Source of the DNA: Chloroflexota bacterium
Lineage (GTDB): Bacteria; Chloroflexota; Anaerolineae; Aggregatilineales; Phototrophicaceae
Direction: 5' to 3'
Assembly (NCBI GenBank): GCA_026706395.1
Contig: JAPOYU010000085.1
Span: forward strand, 1-47,939
Length of the DNA stretch: 47,939 bases
Shown: positions 17,271 through 47,939 of the stretch, one piece after another
How the letters are laid out: each line of letters starts with the position of its first letter
How positions within the stretch are numbered: the first letter of the stretch is position 1
The notes under the pieces: generated by a model
Told to the model about the DNA's origin: nothing
The model's input: only the letters and a program-made list of their open reading frames with translations
Databases searched by the model: none
Made by a program: the position numbers and the translations under genes

Positions 17271-18503
17271 TCATGCCGAAGAGGGGACTTTGTCAAGCGA
17301 CGTATCCAGGTCGGCGATGATGTCCTCGGGATCTTCGATGCCAAGAGCAAAGCGCACAAGATTATCCTTGATGCCGATCGCCAGGCGCTCCTCGCTGCTG
17401 AGATCATAGTAGCTGAAGTAGGCCGGCTGCTCGATGAGACTCTCGGTCCCGCCGAGGCTGGGCGCGATATACGGAATGCGCAAGCGGTCGATGAAGTCGC
17501 TGGTGGTCTTGATGTCTCCGGCGACCTCGAAACTGACCACGCCGCCGAAGCCCGGCATCTGCGCGGCCGCGATTTTATGATCTGGATGCGATGGCAACCC
17601 AGGATAATAGACGTGCTCGATCTTGCGATGCCCTTCGAGAAACTGCGCGACTCTCAAGGCAGATTCATTTTGATGGCGCACACGCAGCGCCAGCGTCTTG
17701 AGGCCACGCTCCAGCAGAAAAGCCTGGTGCGGGTCGATAACATTGCCGAATATGCCGCGCGCGTCCTTCAGCGCTTTGATGCGTCCGGCGTCGCCGGCGA
17801 TCACCCCGCCGAGGACATCGTTATGACCGCCGAAGTATTTGGTGGCGCTGTGCATGACGAAGTCGACGCCATACTCCAGCGGTTTCAAGTTGACCGGCGT
17901 GGCAAATGTCGTATCCAGCAGGGTCATCACGCGGTACTGTTTGGCCAACTCCACCAGGCGGCGCAGATCGGCCACGCGCAAATATGGATTTGTGGGCGTC
18001 TCGGTAAAGATGAAACGCGTCTTGCGCGGCATGGTCGCCGCTTCAAGCGCGTCATAATCTCCCATCGCGACGATGGTCGTCTCGACGCCAAACTTGTTCA
18101 GCGTCGTCTCGCAGAACTGGCGAGTGCGGCGGTAGCAGTCATCCGTCATGATGATGTGCGTACCGGGACGCAGGACAGTCAGAAACAGCGATGTGACAGC
18201 CGACATTCCCGACGGGTAAAAGACGGCGTCGTCCGCGCCTTCCAGTTGGGCGATGCGCGATTCCAGGGACCAGGTTGATGGATTGCCGTAGCGGGCATAT
18301 TCTTCGCGGTCCAACTCGCCGCCGTAGACCTTGCCGTCCAAGAATTCTATGAGCTTGGCTGTATCAGCAAAGGTATATGTCGCCGACTGAACAATCGGCG
18401 TAGTCATGGCATGAAAGCCCTTTTCACGATCGGCGCCGCCATGCACCGCATTGGTGCTGTCGCCTATGAATCTACAATCTGCACGCGCGCTAGTCTTGTT
18501 CAT
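17271..18503 (-). CDS. metB: Cystathionine gamma-synthase (plant-like), SAM-riboswitch controlled
   Basis: 410 residues from the ATG at 18503, chosen because AAGGA lies 8 bases upstream and the terminator ends just before it. Fold-type I Cys/Met metabolism PLP enzyme: PLP Lys222 in HSATKYFGGHNDVLGG, the Tyr/Arg site RYGNPSTWSLE, and DCYRRTRQF. From memory, these stretches and the C-terminal IPYIAPSLGGTESLIEQPA resemble plant cystathionine gamma-synthases more than E. coli MetB. Plant enzymes use O-phosphohomoserine, which the adjacent thrB makes. The SAM-I riboswitch places it in methionine synthesis, not methionine breakdown. O-acyl-homoserine sulfhydrylase activity is a possible alternative. 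Confidence 0.85.
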   Translation of the reverse strand: MNKTSARADCRFIGDSTNAVHGGADREKGFHAMTTPIVQSATYTFADTAKLIEFLDGKVYGGELDREEYARYGNPSTWSLESRIAQLEGADDAVFYPSGMSAVTSLFLTVLRPGTHIIMTDDCYRRTRQFCETTLNKFGVETTIVAMGDYDALEAATMPRKTRFIFTETPTNPYLRVADLRRLVELAKQYRVMTLLDTTFATPVNLKPLEYGVDFVMHSATKYFGGHNDVLGGVIAGDAGRIKALKDARGIFGNVIDPHQAFLLERGLKTLALRVRHQNESALRVAQFLEGHRKIEHVYYPGLPSHPDHKIAAAQMPGFGGVVSFEVAGDIKTTSDFIDRLRIPYIAPSLGGTESLIEQPAYFSYYDLSSEERLAIGIKDNLVRFALGIEDPEDIIADLDTSLDKVPSSA

Positions 18504-18521
18504 TTTCTGATCCTTCCCAAC

Positions 18522-18561
18522 AAAAAAGCCCAAACTTTAGGCGATACGCCGGTTTGGGCTT
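18522..18561 (-). terminator. Riboswitch-controlled intrinsic terminator before metB
   Basis: On the minus strand AAGCCCAAAC and GTTTGGGCTT form a perfect 10-base-pair stem, followed at once by a run of T (GGGCTTTTTTG). It ends about 18 bases before the metB start, just upstream of its Shine-Dalgarno. This is the expression platform of the SAM-I element, and terminates when SAM is bound. Confidence 0.92.
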
Positions 18562-18640: not shown

Positions 18641-18757
18641 GCGTTTACCCTCATCTTCCAGAATTATCTGCCGAAATTAGCACCTTCCCATTGCCTGTTG
18701 GGGGTTGCTGTGGCTTCGCCGAGTCGGTCTCTCCACCACCTCTGGATAAGCGCAAAC
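18641..18757 (-). promoter_or_regulatory. SAM-I (S-box) riboswitch aptamer
   Basis: Minus-strand sequence has the SAM-I core in order: CTTATCCAGAGG (P1 and start of the kink-turn), GGTGGAGAGAC, GCCACAGCAACC, AAGGTGCTAATTTC, a CAGA-TAAT-TCTG P4 hairpin, and the closing GATGAG strand. The P1 arms pair (CTTATC with GATGAG, plus GTTT with AAAC further out). It lies between a predicted promoter and an intrinsic terminator directly before metB. Binding of S-adenosylmethionine should favour termination and shut off metB. Confidence 0.95.
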
Positions 18758-27946: not shown

Positions 27947-28534
27947 CTAGACGATACGACCGTTGCCGCTGCGCGCTTTTGCAGCAGCCTCGGCCAGAGC
28001 CCGGCGATTGATGAAATTTGTATCATGGATTCGCGTTCCACGGCCCATGGACACTACGCCAGTTCGGATCATCTCGACGATGCCAGTCGGGCGGACTTCT
28101 TCGATGAATTCCTCGAGGATCGTTTCCGTGCCGACCATCTCAATGATGGCAACTTCCGGTCCAACATCAATGATTCGAGCGGGATAGCGGTCGCAAATCT
28201 CGGTGATTGTATTGCGCGATTCGGCATCGTGGTTGCGTACCTTGATGAGCGCCAGGTCACGCTCCACGTGGGGTTCGTTATCGAGCACGCGAACATCAAT
28301 GACATTAACCAACTTCTGCAAATTGGAAGCGATTTTCCTGGCGTACTCGGGACCGGCCACGACACGTATGGTCATGCGAGAGATATGCGGTCTGTGTGTC
28401 CGCCCCACCGTGAGACTGTCAATATTGAAGGCGCGCCGGCGAAAAAGACTCGCAATTCGATTTAAGACGCCGGGTTCATTCTCGACGAGCGCTACCACGG
28501 TCATCTTGTTTTCAGTCGTCATTTCAGCCATCAT
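27947..28534 (-). CDS. ilvN: Acetolactate synthase regulatory subunit
   Basis: 195 residues; ATGA overlap of 4 bases with the ilvB stop, so translation is coupled. An alternative start is the next codon (ATG at 28531), with better spacing from GGAG. An N-terminal ACT domain (VVALVENEPGVLNRIASLFRRRAFNIDSL) binds valine and gives feedback inhibition. The C-terminal half matches ALS_ss_C. It partners IlvB. Confidence 0.95.
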   Translation of the reverse strand: MMAEMTTENKMTVVALVENEPGVLNRIASLFRRRAFNIDSLTVGRTHRPHISRMTIRVVAGPEYARKIASNLQKLVNVIDVRVLDNEPHVERDLALIKVRNHDAESRNTITEICDRYPARIIDVGPEVAIIEMVGTETILEEFIEEVRPTGIVEMIRTGVVSMGRGTRIHDTNFINRRALAEAAAKARSGNGRIV

Positions 28535-30231
28535 GCTTCTCCTGGCTTCGGCCGGCGCTTCATATCGTGCAGGTCGGCGCCAGCGGGGACCATCGGGTAG
28601 ACCATTTCTTCTTTCTCGACCACAAATTCGATCAGCGTCGGACCGTCTATACTGCGGGCATATCGCACGGCATCCTCGATTTCGTCTCTTTGCGTCACCA
28701 AGCGATTAGGGATGCCGTAGGCGTCCGCCAGTTTGCAGAAGTCCGGATTCACCATCGGCGTCGCCTGATAGCGTTTTTCAAAGAAGAGCTCCTGCCATTG
28801 GCGCACCATGCCCAGGAAATTGTTGTTGATGATGGCGATATTCACATTGACCTTTTCTTGAACGGCGGTTGCCATTTCGCAGAGGGTCATTTGGAAGCCA
28901 CCGTCGCCGACGATGGCCCAGATTTCTTCGTCGGGTTTGCCGAATTTGGCGCCGATGGCGGCAGGAAAGCCGAAACCCATAGTGCCCAAGCCGCCGCTTG
29001 TTAGCAAGGTAGCGGGTCGCTGATGCGGGTAGTATTGCGCTTCCAGCATTTGATGCTGCCCGACATCGGTAACAGTAATGGCATCGCCGCCGGTCAAGCG
29101 CCAGATGTCATTGATCACCTGTGCAGTAAGCAGCTTGCCCGGGGTCTCATAATTCAAGATATCGCGTTCGCTGGAATCTTCTTGCCAGTCGCGGATCCGC
29201 CTTATCCAGTCGGGATGGGCTTTTCGCGGCAATTTAGGCAGCAGTTGCGTCAATACGGTCTTGAGATCGCCGGCGATTCCGACGTCCGCTCTCACGTTTT
29301 TGTTGATTTCTGAGCGGTCGATATCAACGTGAATTTTCCGAGCGTTGACGGCGTAGGTCTTCAAATTGCCAGTGACGCGGTCGTCAAAGCGCATGCCGAG
29401 GGCAATCAGCAGGTCGGCCTCTTGGATCGCCAAGTTAGAGCAGGCTTCGCCGTGCATGCCCATCATGCCGAGGACCAGCGGGTGGTCTTCCGGCAGGGCG
29501 CCCTTTCCGAGCAGCGTCAACGTGACAGGAATCTGCGCTCGTTCAGCCAACTCGCGCACTTCGTTCATCGCGCCGGACATCATGATGCCGTGCCCGGCGA
29601 GGATGATAGGGCGCTCAGCTTCGGCAATCAACCTCAGCGCCGCATCAATCTCATGCTCTTCGGCGGCGGACGGAGGGTGATAGCCCGGCAAGACTATGTC
29701 AGCTTCCGGGTAAATAAACTCGGTCTCAGCGATCTGAACATCTTTTGGCACATCAACCAAGACGGGGCCCGGACGCCCGGTTCGCGCGATATGAAAGGCT
29801 TCTTTCATGGTATAGGCCAACTCGCGTACATCCGTGACCAGGTAATTGTGCTTTGTGATCGGCAGCGTGACACCAGTTACATCGGTCTCCTGGAAGGCGT
29901 CGGATCCGATTGCGGGAATAGGCACCTGCCCGGTAATGGCCACAATTGGCGAAGAATCCATCATCGCGGTTGCCAAACCCGTCACCAGATTAGTCGCGCC
30001 CGGACCGCTAGTGGCGATGCAGACGCCGACCTCGCCGGTTGCGCGAGCATATCCGTCCGCCATATGTGAGGCCCCTTGCTCGTGGCGGACGAGGACATGA
30101 TGAAGACGGTCGTCGTATTTCGCCATCGCATCGTAGGTGGGGAGGATCGCCCCACCAGGATAGCCAAACATGACATGTACGCCTTCGGCTAAAAGGCATT
30201 CCATGATGATTTCCGAACCTTTGAGTCTCAT
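28531..30231 (-). CDS. ilvB: Acetolactate synthase catalytic subunit
   Basis: 566 residues from the second of two adjacent ATG codons, which has AGGAGG at the better spacing. Three-domain ThDP enzyme: catalytic Glu region VMFGYPGGAILPTYD and RHEQGASHMADGYARATG, central FAD-binding domain, and the C-terminal ThDP/Mg motif GDGGFQMTLCEMATAVQEKVNVN. It condenses two pyruvates, or pyruvate with 2-oxobutyrate, feeding valine/leucine and isoleucine. It lies 42 bases after ilvE. Confidence 0.96.
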   Translation of the reverse strand: MRLKGSEIIMECLLAEGVHVMFGYPGGAILPTYDAMAKYDDRLHHVLVRHEQGASHMADGYARATGEVGVCIATSGPGATNLVTGLATAMMDSSPIVAITGQVPIPAIGSDAFQETDVTGVTLPITKHNYLVTDVRELAYTMKEAFHIARTGRPGPVLVDVPKDVQIAETEFIYPEADIVLPGYHPPSAAEEHEIDAALRLIAEAERPIILAGHGIMMSGAMNEVRELAERAQIPVTLTLLGKGALPEDHPLVLGMMGMHGEACSNLAIQEADLLIALGMRFDDRVTGNLKTYAVNARKIHVDIDRSEINKNVRADVGIAGDLKTVLTQLLPKLPRKAHPDWIRRIRDWQEDSSERDILNYETPGKLLTAQVINDIWRLTGGDAITVTDVGQHQMLEAQYYPHQRPATLLTSGGLGTMGFGFPAAIGAKFGKPDEEIWAIVGDGGFQMTLCEMATAVQEKVNVNIAIINNNFLGMVRQWQELFFEKRYQATPMVNPDFCKLADAYGIPNRLVTQRDEIEDAVRYARSIDGPTLIEFVVEKEEMVYPMVPAGADLHDMKRRPKPGEA

Positions 30232-30273
30232 CATCGCCTCCTGGAAACCTCGCTTACATCCGGATCCAACGCA

Positions 30274-31194
30274 TTAGGCATTCACGAAAGTCAGCCAACC
30301 GTATTTGTCAGGCGCCTCACCGGCGGTGATGGCGAAGAATTCGCGCTGCACCGCTTCCGTGACCGGTCCGCGCTTGCCGCAGCCGATAGATATCCGATCC
30401 ACAGACTTGACCGGCGTTACTTCGGCAGCGGTGCCGGTGAAGAAGATTTCGTCCGCCATGTACAGCATCTCCCTTGCGACAGGCTGGAAGCGAACTTCGA
30501 CGCCCAGATCGGCAAGGATCGTCAATGCGCTGTCACGGGTGATCCCCATCAGAATTGATGACCAAGCGCCAGGCGTATAGACCACGTCATCGAGAATGAC
30601 AAAGATGTTTTCGCCGGCGCCTTCGCTTACGTAGCCGTTGACATCCAGCGCGATACCTTCCTCAAAACCATTGTCATGCGCTTCCATGCTGACAAACTGG
30701 CTGTTGACGTAATTGCCGCCTGCCTTGACCAAAGCCATGTGCGTGTCGGGCGCCATCCGACGGAAGGAGCTGATCTGCACATCGACGCCCTGCTCAATCG
30801 CTTCCGCGCCTAGATAGCGACCCCACTCCATGGTGAGTATGACGGTCTCGGTCGTCGTCCGGCCGCGCCCCTCCAAGCCCAAGGCGCCTGAACCGCGGAA
30901 GATGATCGGGCGGATGTAGCAGGAGGCGTGTCCATTGCGGCGGATCGTTTCAATGATTGTGGCGTCCAGCAACTCAGGACTGTTGTCGTGCTCGATCCGC
31001 ATGATGCGCGCGCCGTGCATCAGCCGTTCGCTATGCTCGCGCAGCCGGAAGACCGCGGGACCGTCCGGCGTGTCGTAGGCGCGTATTCCCTCAAAGACAC
31101 TCGAACCATAATGCAAGGCGTGTGCGCTGACGTGCACTGTAGCGTCGTCCCACTTCACAAACTCGCCGTTCCGCCATATCCATTCAGCCGTCAT
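30274..31194 (-). CDS. ilvE: Branched-chain amino acid aminotransferase
   Basis: 306 residues from the ATG at 31194, with GGGGA 7 bases upstream. Fold-type IV PLP enzyme: ALHYGSSVFEGIRAY near the N-terminus, the PLP Lys region MALVKAGGNYVNSQF, EGAGENIFVI, and the phosphate-binding GTAAEVTPV. It transaminates Val, Leu and Ile with 2-oxoglutarate. It is the first enzyme gene of the BCAA operon and follows the attenuator and a structured 5' leader. Confidence 0.95.
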   Translation of the reverse strand: MTAEWIWRNGEFVKWDDATVHVSAHALHYGSSVFEGIRAYDTPDGPAVFRLREHSERLMHGARIMRIEHDNSPELLDATIIETIRRNGHASCYIRPIIFRGSGALGLEGRGRTTTETVILTMEWGRYLGAEAIEQGVDVQISSFRRMAPDTHMALVKAGGNYVNSQFVSMEAHDNGFEEGIALDVNGYVSEGAGENIFVILDDVVYTPGAWSSILMGITRDSALTILADLGVEVRFQPVAREMLYMADEIFFTGTAAEVTPVKSVDRISIGCGKRGPVTEAVQREFFAITAGEAPDKYGWLTFVNA

Positions 31195-31404
31195 GTACAA
31201 GTCCCCGATTCCAATACCTAATCAAACAGAAGACGCTCGCTTGCTCCTAAGTTAGGAACGAAGCAAGCGCCCATCTGGGATCCAGACTCAATCCAGGGAT
31301 GAGTCTGGTCATTCTGCATACCGCTGCCCTGCCCGCGATCCATTTCGTGCATCTTGTAAAATTGTTCCTCGGTCTTCCGCCGATACCGTTTCGCTGCCAC
31401 TCAA
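31195..31404 (-). promoter_or_regulatory. Structured mRNA leader between BCAA attenuator and ilvE
   Basis: About 210 bases separate the attenuator terminator from ilvE. Two strong inverted repeats lie inside: CCAGACTCA/TGAGTCTGG (31282-31308, 9 pairs) and CGCTTGC...TCCTAA/TTAGGA...GCAAGCG (31238-31269). Neither has a U-tract. A 60-codon GTG-initiated frame spans most of it but has no ribosome-binding site or known domain. No T-box sequence was found. The function is unknown, possibly a second layer of control. Confidence 0.45.
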
Positions 31405-31433
31405 CTAAAAAGCCCCCCGTGGCTTGGGAGGCT
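31405..31433 (-). terminator. Attenuator terminator of the BCAA operon (segments 3:4)
   Basis: On the minus strand AGCCTCCC (31433-31426) pairs with GGGGGGCT (31418-31411) through eight base pairs including one G-U. The loop is short and is followed by TTTT (31410-31407). The 5' arm shares bases with the antiterminator segment, so the two structures exclude each other. Confidence 0.9.
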
Positions 31434-31473
31434 CCTGTCTTCAGTCCGTTCGGAATGTCGTCCGCCCAAGCCC
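31421..31473 (-). promoter_or_regulatory. Antiterminator pairing of the BCAA attenuator (segments 2:3)
   Basis: GGCTTGGG (31472-31465), which starts one base after the leader-peptide stop codon, is perfectly complementary to CCCAAGCC (31428-31421). That second segment overlaps the terminator arm and loop. A ribosome stalled in the Ile/Leu/Val run leaves the first segment free and prevents termination. A ribosome at the stop codon covers it and allows termination. Confidence 0.88.
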
Positions 31474-31551
31474 TTAAAGTCCACCGATAATCACGAGGAC
31501 GATGACAAGGACAAGAATGAGGCTGCTTATGATACCGGGTTGGTTGCGCAT
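31474..31551 (-). CDS. ilvL: BCAA attenuation leader peptide
   Basis: ATG at 31551 with GAGG 6 bases upstream; TAA at 31474-31476. The 25-residue peptide is MRNQPGIISS, then twelve consecutive branched-chain residues (LILVLVIVLVII), then GGL. In total 15 of 25 residues are Ile, Leu or Val. It is followed directly by overlapping antiterminator and terminator hairpins and then the ilvE-leuB operon, the arrangement of classical ilv leader peptides. A small hydrophobic membrane peptide is the alternative, but the RNA context strongly favours attenuation. The symbol is by analogy. Confidence 0.9.
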   Translation of the reverse strand: MRNQPGIISSLILVLVIVLVIIGGL

Positions 31552-31584
31552 TCCGCGCCTCGTTAAACATTGGCAAGCGTGGAG

Positions 31585-31613
31585 AGCCTAACGGGTTTTC
31601 TTACTTCTGTCAA
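31585..31613 (-). promoter_or_regulatory. Promoter of the BCAA operon
   Basis: On the minus strand a perfect TTGACA (31608-31613), a 17-base spacer and TAGGCT (31585-31590). Transcription would start near 31578, about 27 bases before the leader-peptide ATG. It lies in the gap after argH. Confidence 0.8.
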
Positions 31614-31692
31614 GTGAACTCACCTGCTGAGGCGAATCAGGCTGGAACTTTCATATAGACTGCCGCCGATTCCCTGTACAATATGCACAATG

Positions 31693-47886: not shown

Positions 47887-47939
47887 GCCTCTGTAGCTCA
47901 GTGGACAGAGCACCGGTCTTCTAAACCGTTGGTCGCAGG
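47887..47939 (+). tRNA. tRNA-Arg(UCU), 3' end outside window
   Basis: The first 53 bases are present: acceptor 5' strand GCCTCTG, TA, D-arm GCTC-AGTGGAC-AGAGC, anticodon arm with loop CTTCTAA (47918-47924) and anticodon TCT at 47920-47922, then the start of the variable loop and T-arm. The first anticodon-stem pair looks like a C-U mismatch. The last third of the gene lies beyond the edge. Confidence 0.9.

What the first reader, a model, noticed from the sequence alone, without database searches (positions are those of the whole stretch)
31405..31613. Classical Ile/Leu/Val attenuator with a leader peptide
A perfect -35, a 25-residue peptide with 12 consecutive branched-chain residues, an antiterminator arm beginning one base past its stop, and a mutually exclusive terminator with a T-run are all in place. 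Leader-peptide attenuation is best known in proteobacteria and actinobacteria. If the host is Chloroflexota, this would extend the mechanism to one nine-gene operon covering three amino acids.
Basis: partly seen in the sequence, partly recalled or inferred. Interest (0 to 1): 0.75.

Follow-up and report, generated by a model that had tools for sequence, protein, structure and literature searches.

The report
Leader-peptide switch for branched-chain amino acids
A short stretch of DNA in front of a nine-gene operon in an uncultured Chloroflexota bacterium looks like a ribosome-driven on/off switch that turns on isoleucine, leucine and valine synthesis when these amino acids run short, and the same switch is kept in dozens of related genomes.

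Summary
On the minus strand, 31613-31405, there are TTGACA-17-TAGGCT, a 25-codon ORF with 12 consecutive Ile/Leu/Val codons, an arm (GGCTTGGGCGG) starting one base after the stop, and a terminator with T5 whose 5' strand is also the arm's partner. Downstream: ilvE-ilvB-ilvN-ilvC-leuA-leuC-leuD-cimA-leuB. The host is Chloroflexota (nearest loci titled Chloroflexi/Anaerolineae; ilvE 94-95% identical). Of 80 ilvE loci, 67 have an Ile/Leu/Val-rich leader before ilvE and two more before ilvD-ilvE: 69 of 69 with ilvE next to ilvB and enough upstream sequence. With the window, 68 of 68 leaders fold a terminator hairpin, 65 of 68 have TTGACA-17-TANNNT, and in 58 of 68 the arm starts one base after the stop. 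Antiterminator pairs are kept in 92% of cells, with a few compensatory changes. Diverged leaders precede ilvB or ilvD in other Chloroflexota. Not found: an upstream protector hairpin. Not shown: termination, stalling, response to starvation. Most likely this is ordinary ribosome-mediated attenuation, in a phylum for which my paper searches listed no report of it; one likely earlier survey could not be read.

The parts
31608..31613 (-). -35 TTGACA
   Evidence: sequence; TTGACA-17-TANNNT within 130 nt upstream of 65 of 68 leaders, 8 of 13,600 shuffles
31585..31590 (-). -10 TAGGCT, TANNNT type
31558..31561 (-). Shine-Dalgarno-like GAGG, 6 nt before ATG
   Evidence: an SD-like motif was found for only 21 of 68 leaders
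31474..31551 (-). leader peptide ORF, MRNQPGIISSLILVLVIVLVIIGGL, stop TAA
   Evidence: counterparts directly before ilvE in 67 of 80 ilvE loci
31462..31472 (-). antiterminator 5' arm GGCTTGGGCGG, one base after the stop
   Evidence: +1 spacing in 58 of 68
31421..31431 (-). antiterminator 3' arm CCTCCCAAGCC, overlapping the terminator 5' strand and loop
31411..31433 (-). terminator hairpin AGCCTCCC-AAGCCAC-GGGGGGCT
   Evidence: local 47-nt fold, -17.3 kcal/mol
31407..31411 (-). T-run of the terminator (TTTTT)
30274..31200 (-). ilvE, first structural gene
   Evidence: NCBIfam TIGR01122; the ORF as listed starts at TTG, an ATG lies two codons in
28531..30234 (-). ilvB
   Evidence: TIGR00118
27947..28534 (-). 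ilvN
   Evidence: TIGR00119
26873..27883 (-). ilvC
   Evidence: TIGR00465
25130..26740 (-). leuA
   Evidence: TIGR00973
23642..25084 (-). leuC
   Evidence: TIGR00170
23019..23645 (-). leuD
   Evidence: TIGR00171
21382..22986 (-). cimA (citramalate synthase)
   Evidence: TIGR00977
20253..21365 (-). leuB
   Evidence: TIGR00169

Best explanation
A ribosome-mediated transcription attenuator controls the ilvE-to-leuB operon. Transcription starts a few bases past the -10, about 31578 (inferred), and a ribosome translates the 25-codon leader behind RNA polymerase. If charged Ile-, Leu- or Val-tRNA is scarce, the ribosome stalls in the 12-codon run; the arm at 31472-31462 stays free, pairs with 31431-31421, blocks the terminator, and the nine genes are transcribed. 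If charged tRNA is ample, the ribosome reaches the stop codon and covers the arm one base downstream; the terminator 31433-31411 forms and transcription ends near 31407. Shown by sequence and comparison: the peptide, the two mutually exclusive pairings and their joint conservation, the fixed spacing, the promoter motif, the gene order. Inferred: translation, coupling, stalling, termination, the sensed amino acids, and that one transcript covers all nine genes.
For: Nine genes on one strand with gaps of at most 132 nt. 67 of 80 ilvE loci have the leader before ilvE and 2 more before ilvD-ilvE; 68 of 68 ilvE leaders contain Ile, Leu and Val. Terminator hairpin in 68 of 68. Antiterminator: 92.0% of 641 cells paired (shuffled 90.2%, 0 of 500 as high; slid partners 31-70%), 9 double-change cells against 2.4 in shuffles (0 of 500). 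Own-arm pairing beats swapped partners in the ilvE set, which was not chosen for pairing: -20.03 against -18.91, 0 of 10,000 permutations. The arm starts +1 from the stop in 58 of 68 and 13 or 16 nt after the last Ile/Leu/Val run in 56 of 68, about the spacing needed for a stalled ribosome to leave the arm free. Promoter motif in 65 of 68, 8 of 13,600 shuffles. One match of the covariance model in each of six relatives' genomes. The leader stays in L035, L037, L066 and L067, where argH was not found upstream.
Against: No RNA, reporter or proteomic data. No protector hairpin. Whole-leader fold not unusual. An SD-like motif for only 21 of 68 leaders, and 12 of 68 best-scoring starts are TTG or GTG. 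The arm is nearly invariant, so covariation rests on few sequences: shuffles already pair 90.2% of cells, 3 pairs with double changes (74 of 500 shuffles reach that), further pair types reached by 235 of 500, and the covariation score 0.069 is exceeded by slides of -1 and +1 (0.070, 0.085). The loop-side pairs fail often (18 and 11 of 65), the outermost in 10 of 59. L049 pairs its arm poorly. No test removes relatedness. In Streptomyces coelicolor, changing ilvB leader codons had no effect (PMC1262725, passages), so this anatomy does not guarantee the mechanism.
Confidence: 0.88

Rival explanations
1. The leader ORF and terminator are real and regulatory, but the signal is not codon-specific stalling: general translation rate, a bound protein, or another RNA contact decides between the hairpins.
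For: Regulatory-codon substitutions had no effect for S. coelicolor ilvB (PMC1262725, passages). The arm GGCTTGGG is very strongly conserved in sequence, not only in pairing.
Against: 68 of 68 leaders keep Ile, Leu and Val codons. Of 9 other ILV-rich mini-ORFs in the scanned loci only 2 passed the attenuator test, and both precede ilvD-ilvE. High arm conservation also fits its partner's double pairing duty.
Confidence: 0.08
2. The hairpin is simply the terminator of the upstream argG-argH operon, and the ORF is a small hydrophobic protein or chance.
For: argH precedes on the same strand in the window and in most of the 67 loci.
Against: A conserved promoter motif lies between argH and the hairpin; leader and hairpin persist where argH was not found upstream (L035, L037, L066, L067) and 2.7 kb from it in L062; the same design precedes ilvB and ilvD elsewhere.
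Confidence: 0.02
3. The peptide itself acts, as an arrest peptide or in trans, and the amino-acid run serves its chemistry rather than supply sensing.
For: A C-terminal Ser/Gly-Gly-Leu-stop is common in the ilvE set.
Against: The N-terminal part varies freely and Ile, Leu and Val interchange; distant leaders lack this tail. The tail also works as the spacer that sets ribosome position.
Confidence: 0.02

Closest known systems
Corynebacterium ilvBNC attenuator / ilvB-II motif (PMC11857589, passages; PMC10272879, passages and section 14)
   Same: BCAA-rich uORF, terminator and antiterminator before acetohydroxy acid synthase genes; reporter and mutational data exist there
   Different: There the motif lies before ilvB and a third, anti-antiterminator hairpin is modelled; here it lies before ilvE, the arm sits 1 nt past the stop, and no upstream hairpin is supported. 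Rfam finds no match here even at E up to 5.
Escherichia coli ilv operon attenuators (structure recalled; mentioned in PMC10272879, passages)
   Same: Ile/Leu/Val codons in a leader, terminator against antiterminator, multi-gene BCAA operon
   Different: Multi-segment leader with a protector hairpin (recalled); no evidence of one here. No sequence kinship was tested.
Staphylococcus aureus BCAA attenuator peptide (PMC5794164, search listing and start of abstract only)
   Same: leucine-rich attenuator peptide repressing BCAA synthesis outside Proteobacteria
   Different: Firmicutes, acting beside CodY; this window's leader is rich in all three amino acids
ilvB-OMG and Leptospira ilvB motifs (PMC10272879, section 14)
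   Same: BCAA-rich uORFs before ilvB proposed as attenuators
   Different: also rich in threonine codons; no Rfam match of this window

Membership tests
ribosome-mediated (leader-peptide) transcription attenuator | short translated ORF with codons for the amino acids the operon makes | tested here: met
   15 of 25 residues Ile/Leu/Val in the window; 68 of 68 leaders hold all three. Translation itself not tested; SD-like motif in 21 of 68.
ribosome-mediated (leader-peptide) transcription attenuator | intrinsic terminator between leader and first gene | tested here: met
   68 of 68 fold a hairpin with a T-rich tail, interrupted in L058 and L059; termination itself not tested
ribosome-mediated (leader-peptide) transcription attenuator | mutually exclusive antiterminator | tested here: met
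   92.0% of 641 cells paired; shuffled 90.2%, slid 31-70%; swap test of the ilvE set 0 of 10,000
ribosome-mediated (leader-peptide) transcription attenuator | spacing that lets ribosome position choose the hairpin | tested here: met
   +1 nt stop-to-arm in 58 of 68; 13 or 16 nt from last run codon to arm in 56 of 68; footprint size recalled
ribosome-mediated (leader-peptide) transcription attenuator | read-through rises when the amino acids are scarce | not testable with these tools
   needs reporter or RNA data
four-segment trp/his-type attenuator | conserved 1:2 protector/pause hairpin | tested here: not met
   arm against the 106 nt upstream: mean -11.53 observed, -11.36 shuffled. Not filed as this subtype.
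leader, T-box and other RNA families held in Rfam 15 | covariance-model match | tested here: not met
   no match at E up to 5 over 31390-31640

The most novel reading that the evidence does not exclude
Chloroflexota carry their own old family of Ile/Leu/Val attenuators, found before ilvE, ilvB or ilvD and once apparently in tandem (L068), which senses mainly the tRNAs that read NTY codons: leader leucine codons are 82% CTT/CTC against 26% in comparison genes. It would be a widespread amino-acid sensing system of the phylum, separate from T-boxes.
Probability: 0.45. Interest if true: 0.55.

Novelty: new member of a known kind. Interest (0 to 1): 0.45.

Why it matters
It puts most of a BCAA pathway in a large, mostly uncultured phylum under a single predicted sensor, with enough natural variants to test by reporter. 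It also widens the known range of ribosome-mediated attenuation: in 2010 one group knew of leader-peptide systems only in Proteobacteria and Actinobacteria before adding a Firmicutes case (PMC2965389, passage). It does not change how attenuation is understood.

Tried and rejected
Whole-leader MFE fold was uninformative: z -0.07. My first terminator finder reported truncated and some wrong stems; it was replaced by local folds. One search stopped on a script error and was redone. In one search the arm anchor for L063 was wrong; I corrected its reference by hand for the alignment but not in the swap test or geometry counts. Terminator column counts on A1 are out of register for the short-loop group (87.9% paired; slid +1 83.3%) and are not used as evidence.

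Rows dropped: I excluded L072, L077 and L079 by hand although each has a mini-ORF with 9 of 12 Ile/Leu/Val. They are distant ilvE loci with no ilvB found alongside, which scanned every locus with a stricter pairing cut, listed passes only in L068 and L069. L045 has only 366 nt upstream. In one search non-leader ORFs in frames longer than 80 codons were skipped; this filter was not applied to the leaders. In some searches I dropped five rows by judgement (two in L099, one each in L132, L170, L174); L174 is doubtful rather than plainly chance, since its mini-ORF does lie before ilvD though its hairpin is weak. Searches also left out L098 and L099 as already in the ilvE set. One search had no shuffled control, and its set was chosen partly by pairing (duplex at most -9 kcal/mol), so its swap tests lean towards own pairing.

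Model R1 hits L091 and L092 (before an AMP-ligase, no Ile/Leu/Val-rich leader) look like plain terminators; L093 is unconvincing; L090, L094, L095 and L097 were not printed by my script and stay unresolved. ilvD-family genes in six relatives (18 loci) show no convincing leader. No second R1 match in any of the six positive genomes, where 150 first-look candidates per genome were scored.

Papers: eight searches, some listing only part of their hits. The likeliest earlier survey, Lopatovskaya et al. 2010, was seen only in a reference list (PMC4833913, passages) and is not held, so a prior Chloroflexota prediction cannot be excluded.

Full report
WHAT IS THERE. Downstream in the same direction lie ilvE, ilvB, ilvN, ilvC, leuA, leuC, leuD, cimA and leuB, with gaps of at most 132 nt. 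Inside the operon the pattern scan finds five minus-strand terminator-like sites, each inside a gene and with a weaker tail; over both strands it finds 15 sites besides the leader's three, against 11.0 (sd 3.2) in shuffles. Upstream is argG-argH.

HOST. The window's own genome is not held. The nearest ilvE loci, 94-95% identical, are titled Chloroflexi or Anaerolineae bacterium MAGs, and IlvB is 98% identical in one of them. The host is Chloroflexota; I do not name it more closely.

RELATIVES. The ilvE scan gave 149 stretches, 130 relatives and 80 kept loci. 67 of 80 have an Ile/Leu/Val-rich mini-ORF upstream of ilvE with the same downstream block. L068 and L069 have it before ilvD-ilvE. L068 appears to have two leaders in tandem: the second one's best pairing near its stop is weak (-10.4 kcal/mol), but in the sequence GGGTTGGG 419-426 matches CCCAACCC 494-501, about 54 nt before that stop. 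L045 is cut 366 nt before ilvE. L071-L080, where ilvB was not found beside ilvE, have none that passed. So 69 of 69 loci with ilvE beside ilvB and enough sequence carry it. Control: the same scan over these loci and the window (1.96 million positions, both strands) found 9 other Ile/Leu/Val-rich mini-ORFs, 2 of which passed the attenuator test, and those are the L068 and L069 leaders; of the 68 leaders 67 passed.

STRUCTURE. With the window, 68 leaders were compared. All 68 fold a hairpin ahead of a T-rich tail, interrupted in L058 and L059. Its arms change together: AGCCTCCC/GGGGGGCT here, AACCTCC/GGAGGTT (L033), CAGCCCCC/GGGGGCTG (L048), CAAGACCTCCC/GGGGGGTCTTG (L054). On the alignment (65 distinct rows) the antiterminator pairs are kept in 92.0% of 641 cells; slid partners give 31-70%, but shuffles within columns give 90.2%, because the arm hardly varies (0 of 500 reach 92.0). 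Nine cells carry changes on both sides against 2.4 in shuffles (0 of 500), for example GTTTGGG/CCCAAAC in L039, L042 and L052. Weaker measures are not significant: pairs with a double change 3 against 1.7 (74 of 500), further pair types 10 against 9.5 (235 of 500); and the covariation score 0.069 is matched or exceeded by slides of -1 (0.070) and +1 (0.085). Swapping partners between genomes: ilvE set, not chosen for pairing, -20.03 own against -18.91 cross, 0 of 10,000 permutations as good, own partner in the best quarter for 33 of 68. The ilvB/ilvD set gives -19.87 against -14.66, 0 of 10,000 (24 leaders; 21 after removing near-copies, also 0 of 10,000), but that set was chosen partly by pairing. 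None of these tests removes relatedness.

GEOMETRY. The arm begins exactly one base after the stop in 58 of 68, and 13 or 16 nt after the last codon of the final Ile/Leu/Val run in 56 of 68. A ribosome covers roughly ten bases beyond its A-site (recalled). So one stalled at the end of the run would leave the arm free, and one at the stop would cover it. In L032 and L065 the arm lies inside the ORF's last codons, still close to a terminating ribosome. TTGACA-17-TANNNT occurs within 130 nt upstream of 65 of 68 leaders, against 8 of 13,600 shuffled sequences. Start sites are less certain: 56 of 68 chosen starts are ATG, and 21 of 68 have an SD-like motif.

CODONS. Leucine codons are CTT or CTC in 82% of 354 leader codons and 26% of 1463 comparison codons (about 300 codons from ilvE in each locus, all nine genes for the window); NTY codons are 750 of 902 in leaders and 3100 of 5166 in the comparison. 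In the window all 5 leader leucines are CTY. This fits sensing through GAN-anticodon tRNAs, but tRNA genes were not surveyed.

WHAT WAS NOT FOUND. No upstream segment pairs with the arm better than shuffled sequence (-11.53 against -11.36 kcal/mol), so a protector hairpin is not supported. The whole leader's fold is no more stable than shuffles. Rfam has no match in the leader.

SPREAD. A covariance model of the block gave one match in each of six relatives and none in a seventh genome, that of a Caldilineaceae locus. In 400 Chloroflexota genomes, with strict filters and 12 candidates scored per genome, it matched 12. Two of these are ilvE-type genomes already in the set (G001; G241, whose match is the L033 leader); resolvable diverged matches lie before ilvB (L088, L096) and ilvD (L089), each with its own Ile/Leu/Val-rich peptide; others look like plain terminators or were not resolved. 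IlvB was found in 328 of the 400, with a capped list of places. Upstream sequence of 110 was read: the 30 best-matching loci (about 1.5 kb upstream where the contig allowed) and 80 regions that I picked from the listed places (up to 3.3 kb; some cut by contig ends). So the sample leans to closer relatives. 24 of 110 had at least one hit; setting L174 aside leaves 23. Of these, 2 are ilvE-type (L098, L099), 15 lie directly before ilvB and 6 before ilvD-ilvB (in L129 and L130 the gene is known, as the fetched fragment is too short to match). L123 and L131 are the same places as L088 and L096, and L157, L162, L170 and L173 are near-copies. In many the arm lies inside the ORF (GTTTAGG/CCTAAAC, GTTTGGG/CCCAAAC).

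LITERATURE. A 2010 study knew of no leader-peptide system outside Proteobacteria and Actinobacteria, ermC apart, and adds one in Firmicutes (PMC2965389, passages). PMC3766115 (passages) includes five Chloroflexi genomes, suggests that Rfam attenuator motifs may have originated in gamma-proteobacteria, and lists T-boxes for Chloroflexi. Judged by titles and abstract starts, none of the papers listed (0 found; 1; 15 of 147 listed; 9; 5) concerns a Chloroflexota amino-acid attenuator. Lopatovskaya 2010 could not be read.

VERDICT. It is a new member of a known kind; the comparison makes it solid, the kind makes it only moderately surprising.

Noticed in passing
L033, L035, L036, L040, L047, L048, L055, L061, L065, between leader and ilvE: A 60-70 aa ORF with 'SPWTEaYQ' and 'PTHDALsDIYN'-like motifs sits between the attenuator and ilvE. 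Two members have no Pfam match; one finds four relatives besides itself at E up to 0.01 among 5.8 billion proteins. The window's ORF there, 31218-31400, lacks clear motifs by eye.
   Followed up: partly
L068 129-254 and 346-480: Two Ile/Leu/Val-rich leaders, each followed by a terminator-like hairpin, in tandem before ilvD-ilvE-ilvB; a natural double attenuator candidate, the second with its arm far inside the ORF.
   Followed up: partly
window 18648-18752 (-): SAM riboswitch, 78.2 bits, upstream of a Cys/Met-metabolism PLP enzyme at 17271-18533.
   Followed up: no
68 leaders, codon usage: Leader leucine codons are 82% CTT/CTC against 26% in comparison genes; isoleucine prefers ATT.
   Followed up: partly
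L091, L092: Terminators with the same GCTTGGGCGG/CCTCCCAAGC layout just before an AMP-ligase-like gene, with no Ile/Leu/Val-rich leader (gene named by eye); role unknown.
   Followed up: no
L079: A record titled Methanobacteriaceae archaeon encodes an ilvE 57% identical to this one; mis-binning or transfer not examined.
   Followed up: no
window 47887-47939 (+): A tRNA cut off by the window end.
   Followed up: no
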